DNA of 33,545 nucleotides from Promethearchaeota archaeon. GTDB lineage: Archaea; Asgardarchaeota; Lokiarchaeia; Sigyniarchaeales; SOKP01. A program made the position numbers and the translations under genes. The notes beneath the pieces were generated by a model. The model did no database searches, was not told the DNA's origin, and saw nothing but the letters and a program-made list of their open reading frames with translations. Every line of letters starts with the position of its first letter. The stretch's first letter is position 1. The stretch is taken from NCBI GenBank assembly GCA_030667705.1, contig DAOUVJ010000011.1:1-33545 (forward strand), given 5' to 3'. Positions 1,415 to 33,545 of the stretch are shown here, one piece after another.

Positions 1415-2428
1415 ATGTCAGTTGATACAAAAAAATTACAAGCGTTATTACAATGGTATATGCAGAGTATAGGAGAAAATTTAATAGCTGTTATTATTGT
1501 AAATCGAGAAGGATTAATTATCGATAAATTATTTGGCTCTTCAGAAAAACACTTGGATGAGGAAATAGTTGGTGGAGTAAGCGCTCTAGTTGAGCCTGTT
1601 TTGACAAGGATCACGAAAGAATTTAGCTCTGGATCCTTTGGTACGGGAACTTTTGATACGGAGGAATATAGATTGATTTTCTGCGAAGCTGGTCCTGAAG
1701 CTGTTTTAGTCACGATATTAGATGCAATTGCTGGAGTTGATCCAGTTTTTCCGTATGCTTATTTAACCGCAGAAAAGATTGCTCGAATTTTTGATGGAAG
1801 AACCGTAAGTCCTGTTATCCCAAAGCTAATTTCAGATAAAAAGGCGCATAATATTCAAAAAAAAGTAAATCAACTCCAAAAAATAAAAGTACAATCTGGA
1901 GAATATGCGTTCAAATTAATACTTGGAGGAGATGGCTCAGTTGGTAAGACAAGTATGGTTCATCGATTTGTTGATGACGATTTCGCAAAGGATTATAAAT
2001 CAACTATTGGAACTTCAATTATGAAGAAACAATGCAAATTTGATGGATTAGATAGCATTGTTCGATTTGTACTATGGGATCTTGCAGGACAGAGTCAATT
2101 CAAAAAAGTTAGACAATCTTACTTATCAAACGCTGAAGCAGGTATCTTAACATTTGATGTTACTAATCAAATATCATTTGAAAATATTGAAAATTGGCAT
2201 AAAGAAATCCTCTCAGCTTCCCCCAACATATCACTTATTTTAGTAGGAAATAAGATTGATTTAGAAGATGAAAGAGTAGTTTCTAGAGAAGATGGAGAAA
2301 AAACAGCTGAAAAACTTGGAACCCCATATATTGAGACATCAGCTAAGACAGGTGAAAGTATTAATGATGCTTTTAGAATGCTGGCATTGCAGATGATAAA
2401 AATAAATATTGTAGCTGAAGACATATAG
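1415..2428 (+). CDS. N-terminal roadblock/LC7-like domain fused to a Rab/Ras-like small GTPase
   Basis: 337 aa. About the first 130 aa match the roadblock pattern (IAVIIVNREGLIIDKLFG...). The C-terminal G domain has GGDGSVGKTS, TIGTS, WDLAGQ, NKID and ETSAK. Confidence 0.85.
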   Translation: MSVDTKKLQALLQWYMQSIGENLIAVIIVNREGLIIDKLFGSSEKHLDEEIVGGVSALVEPVLTRITKEFSSGSFGTGTFDTEEYRLIFCEAGPEAVLVTILDAIAGVDPVFPYAYLTAEKIARIFDGRTVSPVIPKLISDKKAHNIQKKVNQLQKIKVQSGEYAFKLILGGDGSVGKTSMVHRFVDDDFAKDYKSTIGTSIMKKQCKFDGLDSIVRFVLWDLAGQSQFKKVRQSYLSNAEAGILTFDVTNQISFENIENWHKEILSASPNISLILVGNKIDLEDERVVSREDGEKTAEKLGTPYIETSAKTGESINDAFRMLALQMIKINIVAEDI

Positions 2429-2429
2429 A

Positions 2430-2561
2430 GCCTCTGGGGGGAATTATTCAATCCGGAAGAAGTTTCGCGTAGTTTTTGAACCCCCGATCTACAGATTACG
2501 AATCTTTAGCATCCCCATATTAAAAGATGAGAAAGTTGCTATACCACTAAGCCACAGAGGC
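2430..2561 (-). tRNA. tRNA-Thr (anticodon CGT) with two predicted non-canonical introns
   Basis: Acceptor GCCTCTG/CAGAGGC. Removing about 2506-2534 and about 2444-2475 gives a 71-nt cloverleaf with ACAGA-TTCGTAA-TCTGT anticodon arm and GGGGG-TTCAATT-CCCCC T arm. Confidence 0.8.
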
Positions 2562-2610
2562 AAAAGATCTGTTTAATAAGTATAATTAAAAACAATTATA
2601 AAATTTTTCC

Positions 2611-3633
2611 ATGTCAGATTCTACTAAATTGAAGGAACTTGGTGAAAAAAAATTAATTAGAATTATAGAGGATATCATTTTTCAAAAAACAGGTAATCAT
2701 CCCTTAAAGGATGATTCTTTTTTCTACAAAATTGACAATTATTCTCTTGAAAAAGAAAAAGTCGTGGTATTCAATTCAGATATGTTTGTTTCTACAACCG
2801 ATGCTCCAAAAAAAATGACATTTTACCAAATGGGTCGTAAAGCTATTTTAATGAATATTAGTGATTTAGTCGTGAAGGGAGTTCATCCCGTTGGTGCTTT
2901 CATTTCAATTGGATTACCGCCTAATCTTATTGTTCAATCATTTAGAGAGATAATAGAAGGTGTGGTTGATTACTGTTGCAGATGGAATGTCAGTTATATA
3001 GGAGGAGATATGAACATGACAAATGAAATCATTATAAGTCCAACAGTTTTTGGATTTGAAGATCCTACTAAAATTATATACAGAAAAGGGATGGAAACTG
3101 GAGATATTTTAGTTATTACATCGAAATTTGGCTTAACAGGTGTAGGTTTTGAAATCTTATTAAACCGATATAAAGATTTCAATAAATTTAGTAGTTATGA
3201 AAGATCTATTCAAAGTGTTTTAGTACCTTTTCTTGATGACAAAATCGCTTTTATTTTAGCAGAAAATCAACTTTCCACGGCTAGTATTGATTCGTCAGAT
3301 GGTTTGGCAAGATGTTTAAGAGAATTAATGGTATCAAATCCAGGTATGGGTTTTGATATAAATTTAAATGATAATCTGGTTGATGATGAAGCTCGATCAT
3401 TTTCAAACGTGATTGATGTCCCGCTTGAAGATTTGATATTTAACGCTGGTGAAGAATTCATCCATGTATTCACAATAGCTCCAAATAATTATGAAAAAGC
3501 AAAAAGAATTATTAAATCGAAAAATGGGAAGATTTTTGTTATAGGTAAAGTCAATTCAGAGGGTAAAATTTACATAATTAATAAAAATAAAAGAAAAGAA
3601 TTACAATCTAAGGGATTTGAACACTTCTTATAG
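2611..3633 (+). CDS. thiL: Thiamine-monophosphate kinase
   Basis: 340-aa AIR synthase-like ATP-dependent kinase with ThiL motifs (MNISDLVVKGVHPVGAFISIGLP, YIGGDMN, IDSSDGLA). Confidence 0.85.
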   Translation: MSDSTKLKELGEKKLIRIIEDIIFQKTGNHPLKDDSFFYKIDNYSLEKEKVVVFNSDMFVSTTDAPKKMTFYQMGRKAILMNISDLVVKGVHPVGAFISIGLPPNLIVQSFREIIEGVVDYCCRWNVSYIGGDMNMTNEIIISPTVFGFEDPTKIIYRKGMETGDILVITSKFGLTGVGFEILLNRYKDFNKFSSYERSIQSVLVPFLDDKIAFILAENQLSTASIDSSDGLARCLRELMVSNPGMGFDINLNDNLVDDEARSFSNVIDVPLEDLIFNAGEEFIHVFTIAPNNYEKAKRIIKSKNGKIFVIGKVNSEGKIYIINKNKRKELQSKGFEHFL

Positions 3634-3971: not shown

Positions 3972-4982
3972 ATGATAAAATCTGAGTTGAAACTCCCTTC
4001 TGATGAATCAGAGCAATTAATTATTAAATCGCAAGATATAACAAACCCAGAATATGGAAATATACCAGAAAAACGAAGTATTGATGAATTACTTCAACTA
4101 GGTATTATTAATTTGGATAAACCTAGCGGACCAACGAGTCATGAGGTAGTTTCTTGGGTTCGTAAGATACTAAATATTCCTATTGCTGGTCATGGAGGGA
4201 CTCTTGATCCTAAGGTAACAGGAATTTTGCCTTGCGGTCTTGGTAGTGCTACTCGAGTTTTGTCCGCTCTGTTATCCGCAGGAAAAGAATATGTAGGTGT
4301 CATGTATGTTCATTCACTGGAGAATCCTAAAAAAATTGAAAAAGCCTTTAAGTTATTCACTGGGAAGCTCTACCAAACACCTCCACTTAAATCGGCAGTA
4401 GTACGAAGAATGAGAATAAGAGAGATTTATTATAATAAAGTATTAGAAATTAATAAACAACACGTTCTTTTTCGTGTGGGATGCGAAGCGGGTACTTACA
4501 TTAGAAAATTATGTTTTGACATAGGAGAAACTTTATGTACTGGAGCAAATATGTTAGAACTTAGAAGGACACGAGTGGGTAATTTTCAAGAGGATAATAC
4601 TTTAATGACACTCCAAAATTTGAAGGACGCATGGGAGTTATTTCAAGAAGAAGGCAATGAATACTATATTCGTAAAGTGATTCTTCCAATGGAAGAAATG
4701 GTATCACATCTTCCTAAAATATATTTAAGAGATACTGCTGTTGATGCTATTTGTCATGGTGCAGATGTTGCCGCAGCGGGTATTTGTTATATTGATGCTC
4801 GCATTAAACCAAATATGCAAGTTGCTATAATGACATTGAAAAAAGAATTAATTGGTTTTGGTATACCCATTTTTAATGCCATGAAAATTTATAAAGCAAA
4901 ATCGGGAATAATGGTAAAAATTGATAAGGTTTTCATGAAGCGAAAAATATATCCACACTGGAAAGGAAAGAAATCAAATTAA
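3972..4982 (+). CDS. cbf5: tRNA/rRNA pseudouridine synthase, Cbf5/TruB family with C-terminal PUA domain
   Basis: 336 aa. Contains LDKPSGPTSHEVVSWVRKI and the catalytic-Asp motif HGGTLDPKVTGILPCGLG, with a PUA-like C-terminus. Confidence 0.94.
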   Translation: MIKSELKLPSDESEQLIIKSQDITNPEYGNIPEKRSIDELLQLGIINLDKPSGPTSHEVVSWVRKILNIPIAGHGGTLDPKVTGILPCGLGSATRVLSALLSAGKEYVGVMYVHSLENPKKIEKAFKLFTGKLYQTPPLKSAVVRRMRIREIYYNKVLEINKQHVLFRVGCEAGTYIRKLCFDIGETLCTGANMLELRRTRVGNFQEDNTLMTLQNLKDAWELFQEEGNEYYIRKVILPMEEMVSHLPKIYLRDTAVDAICHGADVAAAGICYIDARIKPNMQVAIMTLKKELIGFGIPIFNAMKIYKAKSGIMVKIDKVFMKRKIYPHWKGKKSN

Positions 4983-4994
4983 TGTGAATATAAA

Positions 4995-5627
4995 ATGACT
5001 CATGATCATCAAGATTACTCAACGACCTTACCGGATGTTTCATTGAAGATACATACGGTTCCTGTAAGTTTAAGAAGACATTTATACATGTTTAAAACTA
5101 TTACGGGTGTTTTTTCGTATAAAAAATTAGATTTAGGAACCAAAGTATTAGTAGATCACATGATCATCCCTGATAAACCAAGTATATTATTAGATTTGGG
5201 TTGTGGTTATGGAGTCATCGGAATTGTCTTGGCTTATGAATCAACCTCTAGTTCCGTGTATTTTATAGATGTAAACAAACGTGCAATTTGGTGTACCCGG
5301 GAAAATGTGAGATTAAATTTACCAAATAATAAAGGAAAATACCGAATTTATACGGGGAATTATTTTAAACCCATAGAAGAAACAAAAGTAATGTTTGATG
5401 CCATATACATGAATCCCCCCTTGCGTCAAGGTCGAAAAGAGTTTCTAGATCTTTTTAAAACCCTACCTAATTACCTAAAACCAAATGGTTCATTTCAATT
5501 TGTAATTAAGAAGAAAATGGGAGCAGAATATGTATATAAATATTTACTTGATCTATTTTCAAATGACAAAATAAAGGTTTTATGCAAACGAAGTGGATAC
5601 TGGGTATTCCATTATTATCAAACATAA
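4995..5627 (+). CDS. Class I SAM-dependent methyltransferase, MTS/RsmC-like
   Basis: 210 aa. Motif I LLDLGCGYGVIGI and NPPLR (NPPY/F-type) motif; lies immediately downstream of cbf5. Confidence 0.85.
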   Translation: MTHDHQDYSTTLPDVSLKIHTVPVSLRRHLYMFKTITGVFSYKKLDLGTKVLVDHMIIPDKPSILLDLGCGYGVIGIVLAYESTSSSVYFIDVNKRAIWCTRENVRLNLPNNKGKYRIYTGNYFKPIEETKVMFDAIYMNPPLRQGRKEFLDLFKTLPNYLKPNGSFQFVIKKKMGAEYVYKYLLDLFSNDKIKVLCKRSGYWVFHYYQT

Positions 5628-5723
5628 CAATTTTTGAAAGTATTTTTTCGAATAATAACGTAAAATTTTTTAGAAATAGAATATTTCTTCATCTAATACT
5701 TACGTGAGATATGAGGATTCCTT

Positions 5724-5981
5724 TTGACTAAGAAGAAAAAAATTGACGTATTGCTCCATGAACTTGTTCCTAAACATTATCTTTTAACAAAGGAAGAAAC
5801 TAAAGAACTTTTAGATAAATTTAAAATAACTGTCACTGATTTACCTCAAATGTTTGAAAAAGACCCAGTTGCAATAGCAATCGGGGCAAAAGAGGGGGAT
5901 GTAGTTAAAATCGTGAGACAGTCTGAAACAACGGTGAAATCAATAGATTATTACCGTTTTGTTAAAAAAGAGAAAGTATAA
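5724..5981 (+). CDS. rpoH: DNA-directed RNA polymerase subunit H (Rpb5-like)
   Basis: 85 aa with TTG start. RpoH pattern HELVPKHYLLTKEET...DPVAIAIGAKEGDVVKIVR; lies directly upstream of rpoB. Confidence 0.93.
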   Translation: MTKKKKIDVLLHELVPKHYLLTKEETKELLDKFKITVTDLPQMFEKDPVAIAIGAKEGDVVKIVRQSETTVKSIDYYRFVKKEKV

Positions 5982-6020
5982 TTTCATTCTCATTATAAAA
6001 AATTAATAAGGTATATAGAT

Positions 6021-9000
6021 TTGAGTACTGAAAAATTATCTAACGTTGATAAATGGGCAGTTTTAAAAAGTCTTTTTGATGAAAAAGGTTTAGTTCGACA
6101 ACATCTTGATTCTTATAACAATTTCATCGAATATGAGATGCAAGCAATTGTAGATGAATCTAATGAAGTTGTTCCTGACATTCCAGGATTTAAAATAAAA
6201 TTTGGAAAGATAATTGTAGGAGTTCCAAAAGTTAGAGAAGCTGATGGAGCCACAATGGAAATAACTCCAATAGAAGCACGTATCAGAGAATTAAGCTATG
6301 CAGCCGATATAATCCTCGAAATGACACCAATTACTATTGATGAAAGGACACAAAGAGAAGAATCCGAAGAAACCTTAGATATTTATATTGGAAAGATCCC
6401 AATTATGCTAAAAAGCTGCCGATGTCCACTTGAAAGCTTGACAGAACAAGAATTAATTAATCGGGGCGAGGACCCGCTTGATCCAGGTGGTTATTTTATA
6501 ATAAATGGAACAGAAAGGGTTCTAGTCACTCAGGAAGATTTAGCACCCAACAGGATATTAGCAGAAGAGGCTAGTAGAAGTTCAAGTGCAACCCATCAAG
6601 CTAAGGTATTTTCAACTAGAAGTGGATTCCGAGCACCAGTAACAATTGAAAGAAAAAAAGATGGAAATTTAAGAGTATCTTTTCCTTCCGTTCCAGGAAA
6701 AATTCCACTCGCAATTTTGATGAGGGCTTTAGGATTACATTCTGATAGAGAAATTTTCCAAGCCATATCTGAAAATGAAGAAATTCAGAAAGAGTTAATT
6801 CCTGTAATTGATGTTGCTTCTGAAATCCAAGTTTTAAAAGACCCAGAGAAATCTCAACAAAACGCTTTAGATTATATTGGTAAAAGGGTTGCCATAGGGC
6901 AAACTAAAGATTATCGTATTAGAAGAGCACTTCAAGTTCTTGATAGATACTTATTACCTCACATTGGTAATGCTGAGGAAGATCGGATTAAAAAAGCATA
7001 TTATCTAGGACAAATGGCACAAAAAGTTATGGAACTTGCATTGATTCTTAGAGAACCAGATGATAAAGATCATTATGCTAACAAGCGATTAAAACTAGCA
7101 GGAGAGTTGTTTACATCTTTATTTAGGGTTGCTTTTCTTAATTTAGTAAAAGATATCAAATATCAGTTAGAGCGAACAGCAGTTCGAGGAAGAGCACCAA
7201 ATATTAAAACAGCAGTTCGAGCAGATGTAATAACGGAGCGTATTAGACATGCTTTAGCAACCGGCAATTGGGTCGGAGGTAAGGCAGGTGTTAGCCAATT
7301 ACTGAATCGAACCAACCATGTGGGAACATTAAGCCATTTAAGAAGGGTTATTTCACCATTAAGTCGCAGTCAACCTCATTTTGAAGCTCGAGATTTGCAT
7401 CCGACACAATGGGGAAAAATTTGTCCAGCAGAAACTCCTGAAGGACCTAATTGTGGATTAGTTAAAAACTTGGGTTTAGCTTCAATAATTTCGGTAGGGG
7501 CAGATGAAAGGATAATTGAAAACATAATTATCGACTTAGGGGTTATTCCAATTAATGAAGTAAAAAACGTTAAAGGTGATAAATCCAAAGTTTTCTTGAA
7601 TGGTAAACTTGTAGGAATTCACCAACAATACAATCCATTCATTCGCCAATTACGAGAAAAACGAAGAAAAGGTGAAATAGGTCAACATGTTAACATCGGC
7701 TTTTACATTGATTCAAAAGAAATCCAAATTAATTGTGACGCTGGAAGAGCAACCAGACCACTTCTTGTAATCAAAAATAAAAAGTTATTGATTACAGGAG
7801 AAGATATTGATAAATTAAAACAAGGCAAGTATGTATGGTCAGATTTGATTCAAAAAGGAGTAATCGAATATTTAGACGCAGAAGAAGAAGAAAACGCATA
7901 TATAGCAATGTTTGAGGAGGATATTTCTAATGAACACACTCATTTAGAAATTTCACCAGCAGCGATATTAGGTATCTGTGCTTCAATTATTCCATTCCCC
8001 GAACATAATCAATCACCTAGAAACACTTATGAAGCAGGAATGGTTAAACAAGCTTTAGGTTTGTTTGCGGCAAATATGCATTTAAGATTAGATACTCGTG
8101 GACATACACTTCATTACCCTCAACAAGCATTAGTAAAAACTAGTCCAATGGAGATAATAGGGATTAATAAACGTCCTTCAGGACAGAACTTCATTATAGC
8201 AATGATGAGTTACGAGGGTTATAATATAGAGGATGCTATTGTTATCAATAAAGCTTCAATTGAAAGGGGTCTTGCGAGAAGTCATTTCTTCCGAACCTAC
8301 GATGCTGAAGAAAGAAAATATCCAGGTGGGGAAGTTGATAAATTTGAGATTCCAGAAAGAGGCGTAAGAGGTTTCAAATCTGCTGAGTCTTATCGTTTAC
8401 TATCAGAAGAGGATGGAATTATTGAGCCCGAAACAACTGTAGGTGGAGGTGATGTGCTCATAGGTAGAACTTCTCCTCCAAGATTTATTAAATCATATGA
8501 AGAATTTGAATTAATGCAACCTAATAGACGTGAAACGTCAAAAAATATGAGACATAACGAGCAAGGAATAGTTGATACGGTAATCATCTCAGAAACTGTT
8601 GATGGAAATAAATTGGTTAAAATTAAGGTAAGAGATTTAAGGATACCTGAATTAGGAGATAAGTTTTCGTCACGCCATGGTCAAAAGGGTGTGCTTGGAT
8701 TAGTTCAACCTCAAGAAGATTTGCCTTTTACTTCTAAAGGTGTGATTCCGGATATTATTGTCAATCCGCATGCCATGCCATCTAGAATGACATTAGGTCA
8801 GCTTTTTGAAGGAATTAGCGGTAAGATCGCTTGTTCTACAGGAGAATTAGGAGATGCAACTGCTTTTGAATGGAAAGACATTACCAAACTTCAAGATCAA
8901 CTCGTACAAGCTGGGTTCGAATTCAATGGACGTGAAATAATGTATAACGGAATTACTGGAGAAAGGTATGAAGCAGGAATATATTGTACTCCAATTTACT

Positions 9001-9392
9001 ACCAGAAACTGTACCATCTGGTTGCTGACAAACTTCATGCTCGAGCACGTGGTCCAGTACAAATTTTAACAAGACAACCTACTGAAGGTCGAGCAAGAGA
9101 AGGGGGTTTAAGATTTGGAGAAATGGAACGAGATTGTTTAGTTGGACATGGTTCTGCCTTGTTATTAAAAGAACGTCTGTTAGATGAATCTGATAGGACT
9201 GTAATATTAGTCTGTGAAAAATGTGGATTGTTAGCTGTATATGATCGAAACCGAGATAAACGGTATTGTCCAGTGTGTGGTGAAGGAACCATTATTTCTA
9301 AGGTTGTATGTTCATATGCATTTAAACTATTGTTACAAGAAATGATGTCATTAGGGTTAGCACCACGTTTAAAATTGAAGGAAAAAATATAA
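6021..9392 (+). CDS. rpoB: DNA-directed RNA polymerase subunit B (single-chain B''+B')
   Basis: 1123 aa with TTG start. Contains GGYFIINGTERVLVTQEDLAPN, ETPEGPNCGLVKNL, GDKFSSRHGQKGVLG and a C-terminal zinc ribbon. Confidence 0.98.
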   Translation: MSTEKLSNVDKWAVLKSLFDEKGLVRQHLDSYNNFIEYEMQAIVDESNEVVPDIPGFKIKFGKIIVGVPKVREADGATMEITPIEARIRELSYAADIILEMTPITIDERTQREESEETLDIYIGKIPIMLKSCRCPLESLTEQELINRGEDPLDPGGYFIINGTERVLVTQEDLAPNRILAEEASRSSSATHQAKVFSTRSGFRAPVTIERKKDGNLRVSFPSVPGKIPLAILMRALGLHSDREIFQAISENEEIQKELIPVIDVASEIQVLKDPEKSQQNALDYIGKRVAIGQTKDYRIRRALQVLDRYLLPHIGNAEEDRIKKAYYLGQMAQKVMELALILREPDDKDHYANKRLKLAGELFTSLFRVAFLNLVKDIKYQLERTAVRGRAPNIKTAVRADVITERIRHALATGNWVGGKAGVSQLLNRTNHVGTLSHLRRVISPLSRSQPHFEARDLHPTQWGKICPAETPEGPNCGLVKNLGLASIISVGADERIIENIIIDLGVIPINEVKNVKGDKSKVFLNGKLVGIHQQYNPFIRQLREKRRKGEIGQHVNIGFYIDSKEIQINCDAGRATRPLLVIKNKKLLITGEDIDKLKQGKYVWSDLIQKGVIEYLDAEEEENAYIAMFEEDISNEHTHLEISPAAILGICASIIPFPEHNQSPRNTYEAGMVKQALGLFAANMHLRLDTRGHTLHYPQQALVKTSPMEIIGINKRPSGQNFIIAMMSYEGYNIEDAIVINKASIERGLARSHFFRTYDAEERKYPGGEVDKFEIPERGVRGFKSAESYRLLSEEDGIIEPETTVGGGDVLIGRTSPPRFIKSYEEFELMQPNRRETSKNMRHNEQGIVDTVIISETVDGNKLVKIKVRDLRIPELGDKFSSRHGQKGVLGLVQPQEDLPFTSKGVIPDIIVNPHAMPSRMTLGQLFEGISGKIACSTGELGDATAFEWKDITKLQDQLVQAGFEFNGREIMYNGITGERYEAGIYCTPIYYQKLYHLVADKLHARARGPVQILTRQPTEGRAREGGLRFGEMERDCLVGHGSALLLKERLLDESDRTVILVCEKCGLLAVYDRNRDKRYCPVCGEGTIISKVVCSYAFKLLLQEMMSLGLAPRLKLKEKI

Positions 9393-20739: not shown

Positions 20740-22416
20740 TTAAGTTAATTTATTCCCACATTTATTACAAAAATCGTAATCAGAAGATAATGTTGCCCCA
20801 CATTGAGAACAAATTAAGAAATCTTTAGGTTTGGGTTCTTCATCTATACTTGGTTTGGAGCTGGATGTTATTACTGTGAATGAATTAGATTCTGGTTCAA
20901 TGTCTGCTATATTCGGAATAATTCTCAAAGTAGACGATTCTTCTACCTTTGGTTCCTCACTCGCTGTGAAAGATACGAATGAGGCCGATTCTTCTATTTT
21001 TACCCCTTCTGTTTTTTGCGTTAGTGCTTGAAATAACGAAGGTGTACTTGTGGTTGCATCAGATTTAGGAAAAACTAATTCTTGTTCGGGTTCTTGCTTT
21101 TTCTTTTCTTTTTTACTTTGTTTCATTTCCTCAATTAATCGATCTTGTTTTTCCTTCTCTACTTTGATTTTATTTTCTTTTTCCTTTTTCTTCTTTTCTT
21201 TTTCAAGTTTTTTCTTTTCTTTTTTAGTTTCTGGCATATCAGCTAATGATTGTGAAAGAGAAGAATCAGAAGTTAAACTTGGTTCTGGTTCAAATGTCAT
21301 TGAGGCGGGTTTAGGTTTTATAGGTTCCTCTTTTTTTGAAACGATAAACGGTATGGTCTGCGTAGTGGAGGTTTCTGCTTTTTGTGTTTTAAATTCTTTT
21401 GGAGTGGGTGCAGGAACAGGTATATTAGAAGAAAATGGAACAGCTCTTGGTTTATATGATTCTTCTACTGGAGTTTGAGAGATTTTTGATGATACCATTG
21501 TTGTTTGGGGATTTTTTATTTCTTGCGATAATATTTCTTCTGGCGTTTTAAATTCAAATTCAGCAGGATCGGGTACGGAAATTTCTGGTGTGGATGCAGG
21601 CTCAAATGATGGTATGGGGTCTTTTTTTGAATCAATTACGGGTTCTGGTACGGGAGGGGCATCGTATTTGATTTCTGGAATTGTATTAGTCTTTACGGGT
21701 TCTGGTATGGGAGGAGCATCATATTTGATTTCTGGAATTGTATTAGTCTTTACGGGTTCTGGTACGGGAGGTGCAGCATAATCGGTCATTGTTTCTAATT
21801 GATTTGATGGCATTTTTTCCTCATTATTACTTACAGGGATTTGACCGGGATTATATACAATATTGTTTAATAGTTGTGTTGGAACTCCTTGACCAATCAT
21901 CAAGCAAGCTAAGATATAGAAACAATCTCCAACGCCATCCCCTGTTTTAGCAGAAGTCTCCATATAATAGAGGTTAAAATCGCGGGTAAAATTATTAATT
22001 TCTTCAAGCGAAACCATGCGTATATCAATTAAATCACTTTTATTTCCCACAAGCAACAGAGGAATTTCAGTTTTTAGATTAGCTCTCACTTCTTCAATCC
22101 ATTGAGGTAAATGTTCAAAACTTGCTGCATTGGTAAGATCAAATACTAACACGGCTCCAAGTGAACCTCTATAATACATTGGTCGGATTGAGCTAAAACG
22201 TTCTTGACCTCCTGTGTCCCAAAGTTGGAGTTTTGCTTTGATAGGTCCTTCAATAGTATTAATTGTAATTGTTTTTACGTGAAAGTCAACTCCAATCGTC
22301 ATTTTATAATCTTCTGTAAAAAAATCCTTGGAAAAGCGTAAAGTTAGGGCAGTTTTACCTACTCCGCCATCCCCTACAACGATTGATTTAAACAAATAGT
22401 CATATTCTTCTGACAT
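20740..22416 (-). CDS. Rab/Ras-like small GTPase with long Pro-rich and Lys/Glu-rich tail and C-terminal zinc ribbon
   Basis: 558 aa. G motifs GDGGVGKTA, TIGVDF, WDTGGQE, NKSD, ETSAK; low-complexity tail; C-terminus CSQCGATLSSDYDFCNKCGNKLT. Confidence 0.92.
   Translation of the reverse strand: MSEEYDYLFKSIVVGDGGVGKTALTLRFSKDFFTEDYKMTIGVDFHVKTITINTIEGPIKAKLQLWDTGGQERFSSIRPMYYRGSLGAVLVFDLTNAASFEHLPQWIEEVRANLKTEIPLLLVGNKSDLIDIRMVSLEEINNFTRDFNLYYMETSAKTGDGVGDCFYILACLMIGQGVPTQLLNNIVYNPGQIPVSNNEEKMPSNQLETMTDYAAPPVPEPVKTNTIPEIKYDAPPIPEPVKTNTIPEIKYDAPPVPEPVIDSKKDPIPSFEPASTPEISVPDPAEFEFKTPEEILSQEIKNPQTTMVSSKISQTPVEESYKPRAVPFSSNIPVPAPTPKEFKTQKAETSTTQTIPFIVSKKEEPIKPKPASMTFEPEPSLTSDSSLSQSLADMPETKKEKKKLEKEKKKKEKENKIKVEKEKQDRLIEEMKQSKKEKKKQEPEQELVFPKSDATTSTPSLFQALTQKTEGVKIEESASFVSFTASEEPKVEESSTLRIIPNIADIEPESNSFTVITSSSKPSIDEEPKPKDFLICSQCGATLSSDYDFCNKCGNKLT
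21640..21780 (-). repeat. Coding tandem repeat, 57-bp unit (about 2.5 copies)
   Basis: Near-identical units at 21640-21696 and 21697-21753 plus a partial unit from 21754. Encodes the 19-aa repeat APPVPEPVKTNTIPEIKYD. Confidence 0.9.
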
Positions 22417-23666: not shown

Positions 23667-24623
23667 TCAAGTAAAAGCAATTTCCAATATCTTTTGGAAC
23701 TTTTCTAGTTCAATTTTTATCTCATTTATCATATTCGCTGGCATACTTACTTCTATATAAAAAATATTCTCTCCCTCTCTTGATGATACTAAGAACATTT
23801 TCACATATTCCGTTTTATCTTCTGAAATTGATACTCTATCATCAATATTCACATTATCATCCTTAAGTCTCTGAAAAAACTCTAGATCATCGTTGATTTT
23901 AGTACTAATAATCTCTTCAAATGCCCTTGTATCCATGGTTTCTTTATAATGATCTGCAATTACAATCCCTGATTCTGTATAAATTATTGCATGATTACAT
24001 TCAAACTTATCAACAAGGAGTTTTAATTCCTTACTAATTTGTTCCAAACTTAGCAATTTATTTAGAGAATAGGACATGGCTTTTGATATGGAAGAAATAT
24101 CATAATATGAAGTGTGAAAGAATTTGAAATTCATATCTTGATTTTGAGATGTGATTAAATTTTCTAACATGATAGCACGATCTTGAAAATCTGCATCATT
24201 TTTAAATTTCGGATCGTGTTTATTAAAACATATCACAACATCGTTCTTGTAGTCCATTCCTCGATAGATATTTAAAACATCATGTAAATATTGCATAACT
24301 TCATCAAACTTTAGCTCATCTTGAATATCAATGAGAAAGTAGAGATAATCAGTCTCCGAAAAATATATAGGATTACTGACGTAGATCTTTCTAAATTTTT
24401 TCTGTCCGCCCATATCCCATATGTTGATTCTATAGGTTTTGAGGAATTTAAATGAACTATAATCTATTTTTATTGTTGGTTTTAAATTTTTTACTCGTTC
24501 ATAAAAGTTATATTTCTGACGTAAAGCGATTAACGCACTGCTTTTTCCGGCATTATCTAAACCAGCGATAACTAATTTGTACTCTTTATATTTTTGCTTT
24601 CTATCTGACATCTTCAAGAACAA
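23667..24623 (-). CDS. Arf/Rag-like small GTPase with C-terminal roadblock-like domain
   Basis: 318 aa. G motifs GLDNAGKSS, PTIKID, WDMGGQKKFR, FNKHD. C-terminal about 120 aa (CNHAIIYTESGIVIADHY...IFYIEVSMPANMINEIKIELEKFQKIL) fit a roadblock/longin-type fold. Confidence 0.85.
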   Translation of the reverse strand: MFLKMSDRKQKYKEYKLVIAGLDNAGKSSALIALRQKYNFYERVKNLKPTIKIDYSSFKFLKTYRINIWDMGGQKKFRKIYVSNPIYFSETDYLYFLIDIQDELKFDEVMQYLHDVLNIYRGMDYKNDVVICFNKHDPKFKNDADFQDRAIMLENLITSQNQDMNFKFFHTSYYDISSISKAMSYSLNKLLSLEQISKELKLLVDKFECNHAIIYTESGIVIADHYKETMDTRAFEEIISTKINDDLEFFQRLKDDNVNIDDRVSISEDKTEYVKMFLVSSREGENIFYIEVSMPANMINEIKIELEKFQKILEIAFT

Positions 24624-27124: not shown

Positions 27125-27655
27125 TTATTTCTGCAGATAAGAGAGTCTATTTATTAACATATCAAAAGCCTCTTTTACATTATATCCCGTTTTTGATGAA
27201 ATTTTTAGGTAATCGATATGTATGTTATTCCTTTCTATAATATTATTAAGATAATTATCAATAATCATATTATTATCTACAAGGTCAAATTTTGTTCCTA
27301 ATATTAATGTTGGCATGGTATTAAATTCCTTTAGTCTTTCTAACCATTCTTCAACATTCTCAAGGCTTGAAATGCGTGTTAAATCAAATAAGATAAATAT
27401 TGCTACAGAACCATATACAAAATCCTCAAGTAATCTCCTAAATTGCCTTTGTCCTGCAAAATCCCACATCACGAAATTAATATCATTTCCATTAACTTTC
27501 ATGCTTTTGGAAAAGAAATCGATACCCCTTGTCAGTTCGCTTTTCACATCGAAATTATAATAAACTAAGCGATTTAGGAAGGAAGTTTTTCCAACTCCCC
27601 CTCCTCCAGTCACGATGACTTTCACATTCTGTGAAATTTGAGGCAACTCATTCAT
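27125..27655 (-). CDS. Ras/Rab-like small GTPase
   Basis: 176 aa. GGGGVGKTS, TRGIDFF, WDFAGQRQFR. G4 is degenerate (TKFD instead of NKxD). Confidence 0.9.
   Translation of the reverse strand: MNELPQISQNVKVIVTGGGGVGKTSFLNRLVYYNFDVKSELTRGIDFFSKSMKVNGNDINFVMWDFAGQRQFRRLLEDFVYGSVAIFILFDLTRISSLENVEEWLERLKEFNTMPTLILGTKFDLVDNNMIIDNYLNNIIERNNIHIDYLKISSKTGYNVKEAFDMLINRLSYLQK

Positions 27656-32379: not shown

Positions 32380-33545
<1,166 letters not shown>

What the first reader, a model, noticed from the sequence alone, without database searches (positions are those of the whole stretch)
1415..2428. Roadblock-Rab fusion: putative regulator domain N-terminal to its GTPase
The sequence shows a roadblock/LC7-like segment (about aa 1-130) followed by a complete G domain. 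In bacteria MglB (roadblock) is a separate protein acting as the GAP for MglA, and in eukaryotes roadblock dimers act as scaffolds or GEFs for small GTPases. A covalent N-terminal fusion could be a self-regulating or dimerising GTPase. There is no C-terminal Cys for prenylation.
Basis: partly seen in the sequence, partly recalled or inferred. Interest (0 to 1): 0.7.

Follow-up and report, generated by a model that had tools for sequence, protein, structure and literature searches.

The report
Roadblock domain fused before Rab-like GTPase
This Lokiarchaeal gene really does encode one protein with a roadblock domain (a kind that usually pairs up and often partners small GTPases) joined in front of a complete Rab-like molecular switch; such fusions were already reported in these archaea, but this copy belongs to a family that looks like a single ancient fusion, kept across its whole class and in the same gene neighbourhood throughout most of its own family.

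Summary
Observation confirmed. ORF 1415-2428 (+, 337 aa) carries an N-terminal roadblock (RB/LC7) domain (aa 1-128), a flexible linker (about 129-162) and a complete Ras/Rab-type G domain (163-328) with every nucleotide-binding motif and the catalytic Gln; there is no C-terminal Cys. Pfam alone barely sees the RB domain (E 0.09-0.12), but profile searches, the predicted fold and Foldseek (top hits: Asgard Roadblock3 homodimer, MglB, MglA:MglB) settle it. The architecture is not new: RB domains fused to Ras-like GTPases were reported for Lokiarchaeum in 2016, and RB/longin-GTPase combinations for MK-D1 in 2024. New detail from this work: (i) the N-domain family is in 82 of 83 Lokiarchaeia genomes searched, and only as stand-alone RB proteins in the other Asgard classes examined; (ii) the fused RB domains form one branch, compatible with a single fusion; (iii) the window's member is a conserved ortholog beside thiL-cbf5-rpoH-rpoB; (iv) its RB domain is at least as conserved as its G domain; (v) paralogs carry C-terminal add-ons, including a candidate anti-phage PDC-S11/DUF4268 module. 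Most likely mechanism (inferred): an RB-mediated homodimer holding two tethered G domains. Whether the RB is a cis GAP or GEF is untested.

The parts
1415..2428 (+). RB-G fusion protein, 337 aa, ATG start
1415..1798 (+). roadblock/LC7 domain, aa 1-128 (H5-19, E23-30, E35-40, H49-69, E77-81, E85-91, E96-103, H109-126)
   Evidence: AF2 secondary structure, Foldseek, profiles
1559..1690 (+). most conserved RB stretch, aa 49-92 (helix 2, strands 3-4: EEIVGGVSALVEPVLTRITKEFSSGSFGTGTFDTEEYRLIFCEA); in known RB proteins helix 2 carries the dimer interface and, in MglB, the MglA-binding face
   Evidence: conservation; PMC10933270 and PMC6785124 for the role of helix 2
1799..1900 (+). linker, aa 129-162; aa 140-161 predicted disordered (pLDDT < 50)
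1901..2398 (+). Ras/Rab-like G domain, aa 163-328
   Evidence: Pfam Ras 3.4e-50, Foldseek Rab27/Rab8/Thor-Rab
1928..1951 (+). P-loop GDGSVGKT, aa 172-179
2078..2092 (+). switch II DLAGQ, aa 222-226, catalytic Gln present
2249..2260 (+). G4 motif NKID, aa 279-282
2333..2347 (+). G5 motif ETSAK, aa 307-311
2611..3633 (+). thiL-like gene, downstream neighbour in 15 of the 18 fetched loci (one of the other three ends before it); part of the conserved neighbourhood, not of the protein
3972..9392 (+). cbf5, methyltransferase, rpoH, rpoB: rest of the conserved neighbourhood

Best explanation
A chromosomal, vertically inherited Lokiarchaeia protein in which a roadblock domain was fused once, in an ancestor of the class, in front of a Rab-like small GTPase. 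Shown: the domains, their folds, intact nucleotide-binding motifs, a disordered linker and strong long-term conservation of both halves. Inferred: the RB domains homodimerise through helix 2 and strand 3, so the protein is a constitutive dimer carrying two G domains on flexible tethers. The RB dimer acts as platform for its own G domains and for partners, much as the in-cis RB domain of Rag GTPases does but with the domain order reversed. The G domain cycles between GTP and GDP as the switch, and lipidation is not used.
For: RB fold and homology; top structural hits are RB homodimers. Complete G domain. Helix 2, strand 3, strand 4 and helix 3 of the RB are as conserved as the P-loop and switches; in all 16 orthologs compared the RB is more similar to the window than the G domain, by 1-12 points. 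Linker pLDDT < 50 at aa 140-161. The fused RBs lie on one branch; one clade of fused G domains is not rejected (AU p 0.65) and the RB and G distances correlate (Mantel r 0.63, p 2e-4). In-cis RB of Rag GTPases dimerises (PMC11016934); Asgard RB proteins crystallise as homodimers (PMC10933270).
Against: Dimerisation was not modelled or measured; only monomers could be predicted. The full-length model has modest confidence (pLDDT 73, pTM 0.69). Some RBs heterodimerise (LAMTOR2/3), and this genome has 14 other RB matches, 10 over Pfam's cut-off, that could be partners. The column-entropy difference between RB and G is not significant (p 0.20).
Confidence: 0.55

Rival explanations
1. Cis regulator: the RB dimer docks on the G domain's strand 2/switch face, as MglB does on MglA, and directly changes GTP hydrolysis or exchange of its own or its dimer partner's G domain.
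For: MglB and MglA:MglB entries are among the best structural matches of the N-domain; helix 2, the MglA-binding face of MglB (PMC6785124), is among the best conserved parts; an engineered MglA-link-MglB fusion was functional when co-expressed with MglB (PMC11016934); in another Asgard class the matched stand-alone RB lies in one gene row with a small GTPase and a second RB (L102).
Against: The G domain is Rab-like, not MglA-like; MglB's acidic GEF helix is absent (the segment after the RB is Lys-rich); in Rag GTPases, the natural in-cis case, no MglA-MglB-like interface exists (PMC11016934). Helix 2 conservation is equally expected from dimerisation.
Confidence: 0.27
2. Targeting or partner-docking module: the RB domain binds other RB or longin proteins, a membrane or another conserved partner and places the GTPase there, without touching its nucleotide cycle.
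For: The RB is at least as conserved as the G domain, as expected for a surface with a fixed partner; the genome has 14 RB matches besides the two fused copies; no lipidation Cys, so another anchor would be useful; a basic RB patch was proposed as membrane-interacting in one MK-D1 RB (PMC10933270).
Against: No partner identified; the neighbouring genes (thiL, cbf5, rpoH, rpoB) are housekeeping and give no partner; no membrane-targeting feature was tested.
Confidence: 0.3
3. The N-domain is a longin or another PAS/GAF-like fold, or the fusion is an annotation or assembly artefact.
For: Pfam Robl_LC7 is below cut-off for the window protein (E 0.09-0.12); one related MAG locus (L026) has the two halves in different frames.
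Against: RB strand/helix order with an N-terminal helix, Foldseek hits all RB; the same continuous frame in dozens of independent genomes; L026 is a single frameshifted copy.
Confidence: 0.02

Closest known systems
RB fused to Ras-like/Rag-like GTPases in Lokiarchaeum and MK-D1 (summarised in PMC4917890 from a re-examination of the genome; PMC10933270, 2024)
   Same: Asgard/Lokiarchaeal proteins joining a roadblock domain to a small GTPase; no C-terminal Cys
   Different: Those papers list architectures; the text read here does not trace this RB-first Rab-like family, its single origin, its gene neighbourhood or the C-terminal add-ons
Rag GTPases (RagA/C, Gtr1/2)
   Same: G domain with a roadblock domain in cis; the RB mediates dimerisation
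   Different: Rag order is G domain then RB; Rag G domain is Arf/Rag-type; here RB comes first and the G domain is Ras/Rab-type (Ras 3.4e-50 against Gtr1_RagA 1.2e-6)
MglA-MglB of Myxococcus and Thermus
   Same: Roadblock protein working with a small Ras-like GTPase; the N-domain model superposes on MglB (TM about 0.7)
   Different: Two separate proteins; MglB has an acidic C-terminal GEF helix; MglA has its own catalytic arrangement
Thor-Rab (7EZB etc.) and eukaryotic Rabs
   Same: G domain fold and motifs
   Different: Single-domain; eukaryotic Rabs end in prenylated Cys
CvnB/CvnD conservons of Streptomyces (from memory: roadblock CvnB and GTPase CvnD in one operon)
   Same: CvnB5 (3leq) is among the best PDB matches of the RB profile (1.4e-17)
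   Different: Separate genes in bacteria

Membership tests
Roadblock/LC7 superfamily (N-domain) | a-b-b-a-b-b-b-a fold | tested here: met
   AF2 pLDDT 86, Foldseek RB hits
Roadblock/LC7 superfamily (N-domain) | sequence homology to known RBs | tested here: met
   Pfam weak alone (0.09-0.12), profile 6e-24 to 9jue, hhalign 98% to stand-alone RBs
Roadblock/LC7 superfamily (N-domain) | dimerisation through helix 2/strand 3 | not testable with these tools
   only monomer prediction offered; the segment is highly conserved
Ras superfamily GTPase | G1-G5 motifs and catalytic Gln | tested here: met
Rab family proper | RabF1-F5 motifs | tested here: inconclusive
   by eye IGTSI, RFVLWD, QFKKVR, YLSNA, LTFDVT: partly Rab-like; motif list from memory, no scoring done
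Rab family proper | C-terminal prenylatable Cys | tested here: not met
   C-terminus MIKINIVAEDI; most relatives also lack a late Cys
MglB (GAP/GEF partner of MglA) | separate RB protein acting on a separate MglA | tested here: not met
   one continuous ORF
MglB (GAP/GEF partner of MglA) | acidic C-terminal GEF helix | tested here: not met
   aa 140-161 SDKKAHNIQKKVNQLQKIKVQS is Lys-rich and predicted disordered; feature from PMC6785124
Rag GTPase | Rag-type G domain followed by C-terminal RB | tested here: not met
   RB is N-terminal; G domain is Ras/Rab-type
Asgard RB-GTPase fusions (PMC4917890, PMC10933270) | RB and small GTPase domains in one Asgard polypeptide | tested here: met
   the individual MK-D1 proteins of the paper were not compared one by one

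The most novel reading that the evidence does not exclude
The RB-Rab unit is a dimeric switch module that Lokiarchaeia reuse with exchangeable outputs: bare in the window's ortholog, with unknown C-terminal domains in 520-560 aa paralogs, and with a PDC-S11/DUF4268 candidate anti-phage module in 670-704 aa paralogs, so that a Rab-like GTPase controls an immune effector.
Probability: 0.12. Interest if true: 0.75.

Novelty: new member of a known kind. Interest (0 to 1): 0.36.

Why it matters
Asgard small GTPases are used to argue how eukaryotic membrane traffic control arose. A Rab-like GTPase that carries a roadblock domain in cis gives a natural, single-chain system for asking whether roadblock dimers were first scaffolds or first GAPs/GEFs for Rab-like switches. 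The ortholog is near-universal in its family (62 of 65 genomes), so the answer would apply broadly. It is not a new architecture.

Tried and rejected
Pfam on the single N-domain was inconclusive and was replaced by profiles and fold. Foldseek of the full-length model was swamped by Rabs, so the N-domain was predicted alone. The viral structure library returned mostly Ras-family proteins of giant viruses matching the G domain: no lead. The longin reading was rejected on topology. An RB plus ubiquitin-like fusion suspected in L075 was dropped: it is one genome, the frame runs into an N gap, Pfam finds no ubiquitin fold, and its C-terminal part matches short separate ORFs elsewhere. PADLOC has no hit for the window protein itself. 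RB/G contact coevolution was not attempted: too few divergent sequences. The MglB residues known to drive its GAP action (Asn37, Arg98, PMC11016934) were not mapped onto this domain because no reliable residue-level alignment to M. xanthus MglB was at hand.

Full report
Observation. ORF 1415-2428 on the + strand reads 337 codons from ATG. Residues 167-327 match Pfam Ras at 3.4e-50.

Is the N-domain a roadblock? Eighteen relatives from Lokiarchaeota MAGs were fetched by sequence: 16 full-length, one cut by its contig end (L025) and one frameshifted (L026). Of 19 N-domains, 12 match Robl_LC7, best 2.6e-5. The family profile matches the MK-D1 roadblock 9jue at 2e-4; with more divergent fused and stand-alone relatives added it matches 9jue at 6e-24, a Thorarchaeal roadblock, CvnB5 and MglB (6e-5). 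That second profile contains stand-alone RBs by construction, so it shows membership through a chain of homologs rather than an independent test. hhalign of the fused family against four stand-alone RBs of the same genome gives 98% probability, E 4e-14. AF2 on 59 N-domains gives pLDDT 86, pTM 0.85 and the RB order H-E-E-H-E-E-E-H; Foldseek's best PDB hits are Roadblock3 of MK-D1 (1.8e-8), MglB (5.3e-8), MglA:MglB and Thorarchaeal RB. The helix before strand 1 argues against longin.

G domain. P-loop GDGSVGKT, switch I YKSTIG, switch II WDLAGQ, NKID and ETSAK are intact. Foldseek of the full model lists Rab27, Rab8 and Thor-Rab. The RabF motifs, judged by eye, are partly Rab-like. No Cys near the C-terminus; 10 of 85 fused frames have a Cys in the last 25 residues, none resembling a prenylation tail (by inspection).

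Conservation. dN/dS is about 0.09-0.13 for the full protein against three relatives. In all 16 orthologs the RB is 1-12 points more similar to the window than the G domain is; by column entropy the difference is not significant (p 0.20). The best conserved RB parts are helix 2, strands 3-4 and helix 3. aa 140-161 of the linker are predicted disordered.

Spread. With the N-domain profile, 82 of 83 genomes of the window's class match, and 23 of 145 outside it (count made's table). In the class the matches listed lie in long open frames of about 310-700 aa, nearly all with a G domain; the exceptions seen were a few frames cut by contig ends, stand-alone RBs and the gap-broken L075. Outside the class the matches examined are stand-alone frames; one search's table was cut off, so this is not exhaustive. 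Strong orthologs (E <= 1e-60) are in 62 of 65 genomes of the window's family. In the fetched loci the gene is followed by thiL (15 of 18), cbf5, a methyltransferase and, where the locus is long enough, rpoH and rpoB, in the same order as in the window; the two most divergent copies (L023, L024) lack this neighbourhood.

Origin. On the RB tree the 57 fused rows lie on one side of a branch (SH-aLRT 91) with one unfused row (L075) nested inside. On the G tree the fused rows need two or three changes, but holding them as one clade gives a better likelihood than the free quick search and is not rejected (AU p 0.65). RB and G distances correlate (Mantel r 0.63, p 2e-4), which is expected for parts of one protein. 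One fusion is therefore compatible with both trees, not proven; the single-domain G set came only from the window's genome.

Relatives with additions. Paralogs of 670-704 aa in several genomes carry a C-terminal region matching PADLOC PDC-S11 (1e-41 to 5e-77) and Pfam DUF4268. The alignment shows the position expected for the catalytic Glu of a PD-(D/E)XK nuclease (motif from memory) replaced in several copies, so activity is doubtful. Their neighbours show no clear defence island. Paralogs of 520-560 aa have an unrecognised C-terminal region.

Literature. [quoted passage not shown] The architecture is known. PMC11016934 notes that the in-cis RB of Rag GTPases dimerises and makes no MglA-MglB-like interface, which is why scaffold/dimeriser is preferred here over cis GAP.

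Mechanism. Shown: domains, folds, intact motifs, conservation, neighbourhood. Inferred: homodimer through the RB, two tethered G domains, RB as platform. Open: whether the RB alters hydrolysis or exchange, what partners bind, where in the cell.

Noticed in passing
L072, L073, L074, L141-L147 (paralog loci): RB-Rab paralogs with a C-terminal PDC-S11/DUF4268 candidate anti-phage module, 670-704 aa; expected catalytic Glu replaced in several copies.
   Followed up: partly
window 20740-22416 (-): Rab-like GTPase with a long low-complexity Pro/Lys-rich tail and a C-terminal zinc ribbon.
   Followed up: no
window 23667-24623 (-): Arf/Rag-like GTPase with about 100 further C-terminal residues; best PDB matches are GTP-binding proteins 8yl2 and 8zla, RagA aligned over 15-239. 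Possibly the opposite domain order.
   Followed up: partly
window 27125-27655 (-): A further single-domain Ras-like GTPase; the window has four small-GTPase genes.
   Followed up: no
L102: Another Asgard class: stand-alone RB, small GTPase (MglA-like by motif) and a second RB in a row.
   Followed up: partly
L083, L092: RB-G relatives whose switch II Gln is lost (FDLGGK, FDMSGS), possibly non-hydrolysing.
   Followed up: no
L006, L140 (own genome, C177 and C146): GTPases with a 175-residue N-terminal domain that is not this RB and looks longin-like by eye.
   Followed up: no
window about 2428-2562 (-): Reverse strand looks like an intron-containing tRNA that ARAGORN did not call.
   Followed up: no
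window 32417-33545 (-): 3' part of archaeal 23S rRNA, cut at the window end; the small minus-strand ORFs there are spurious.
   Followed up: yes
L026: One ortholog is split between two frames in its MAG, probably a sequencing frameshift.
   Followed up: no
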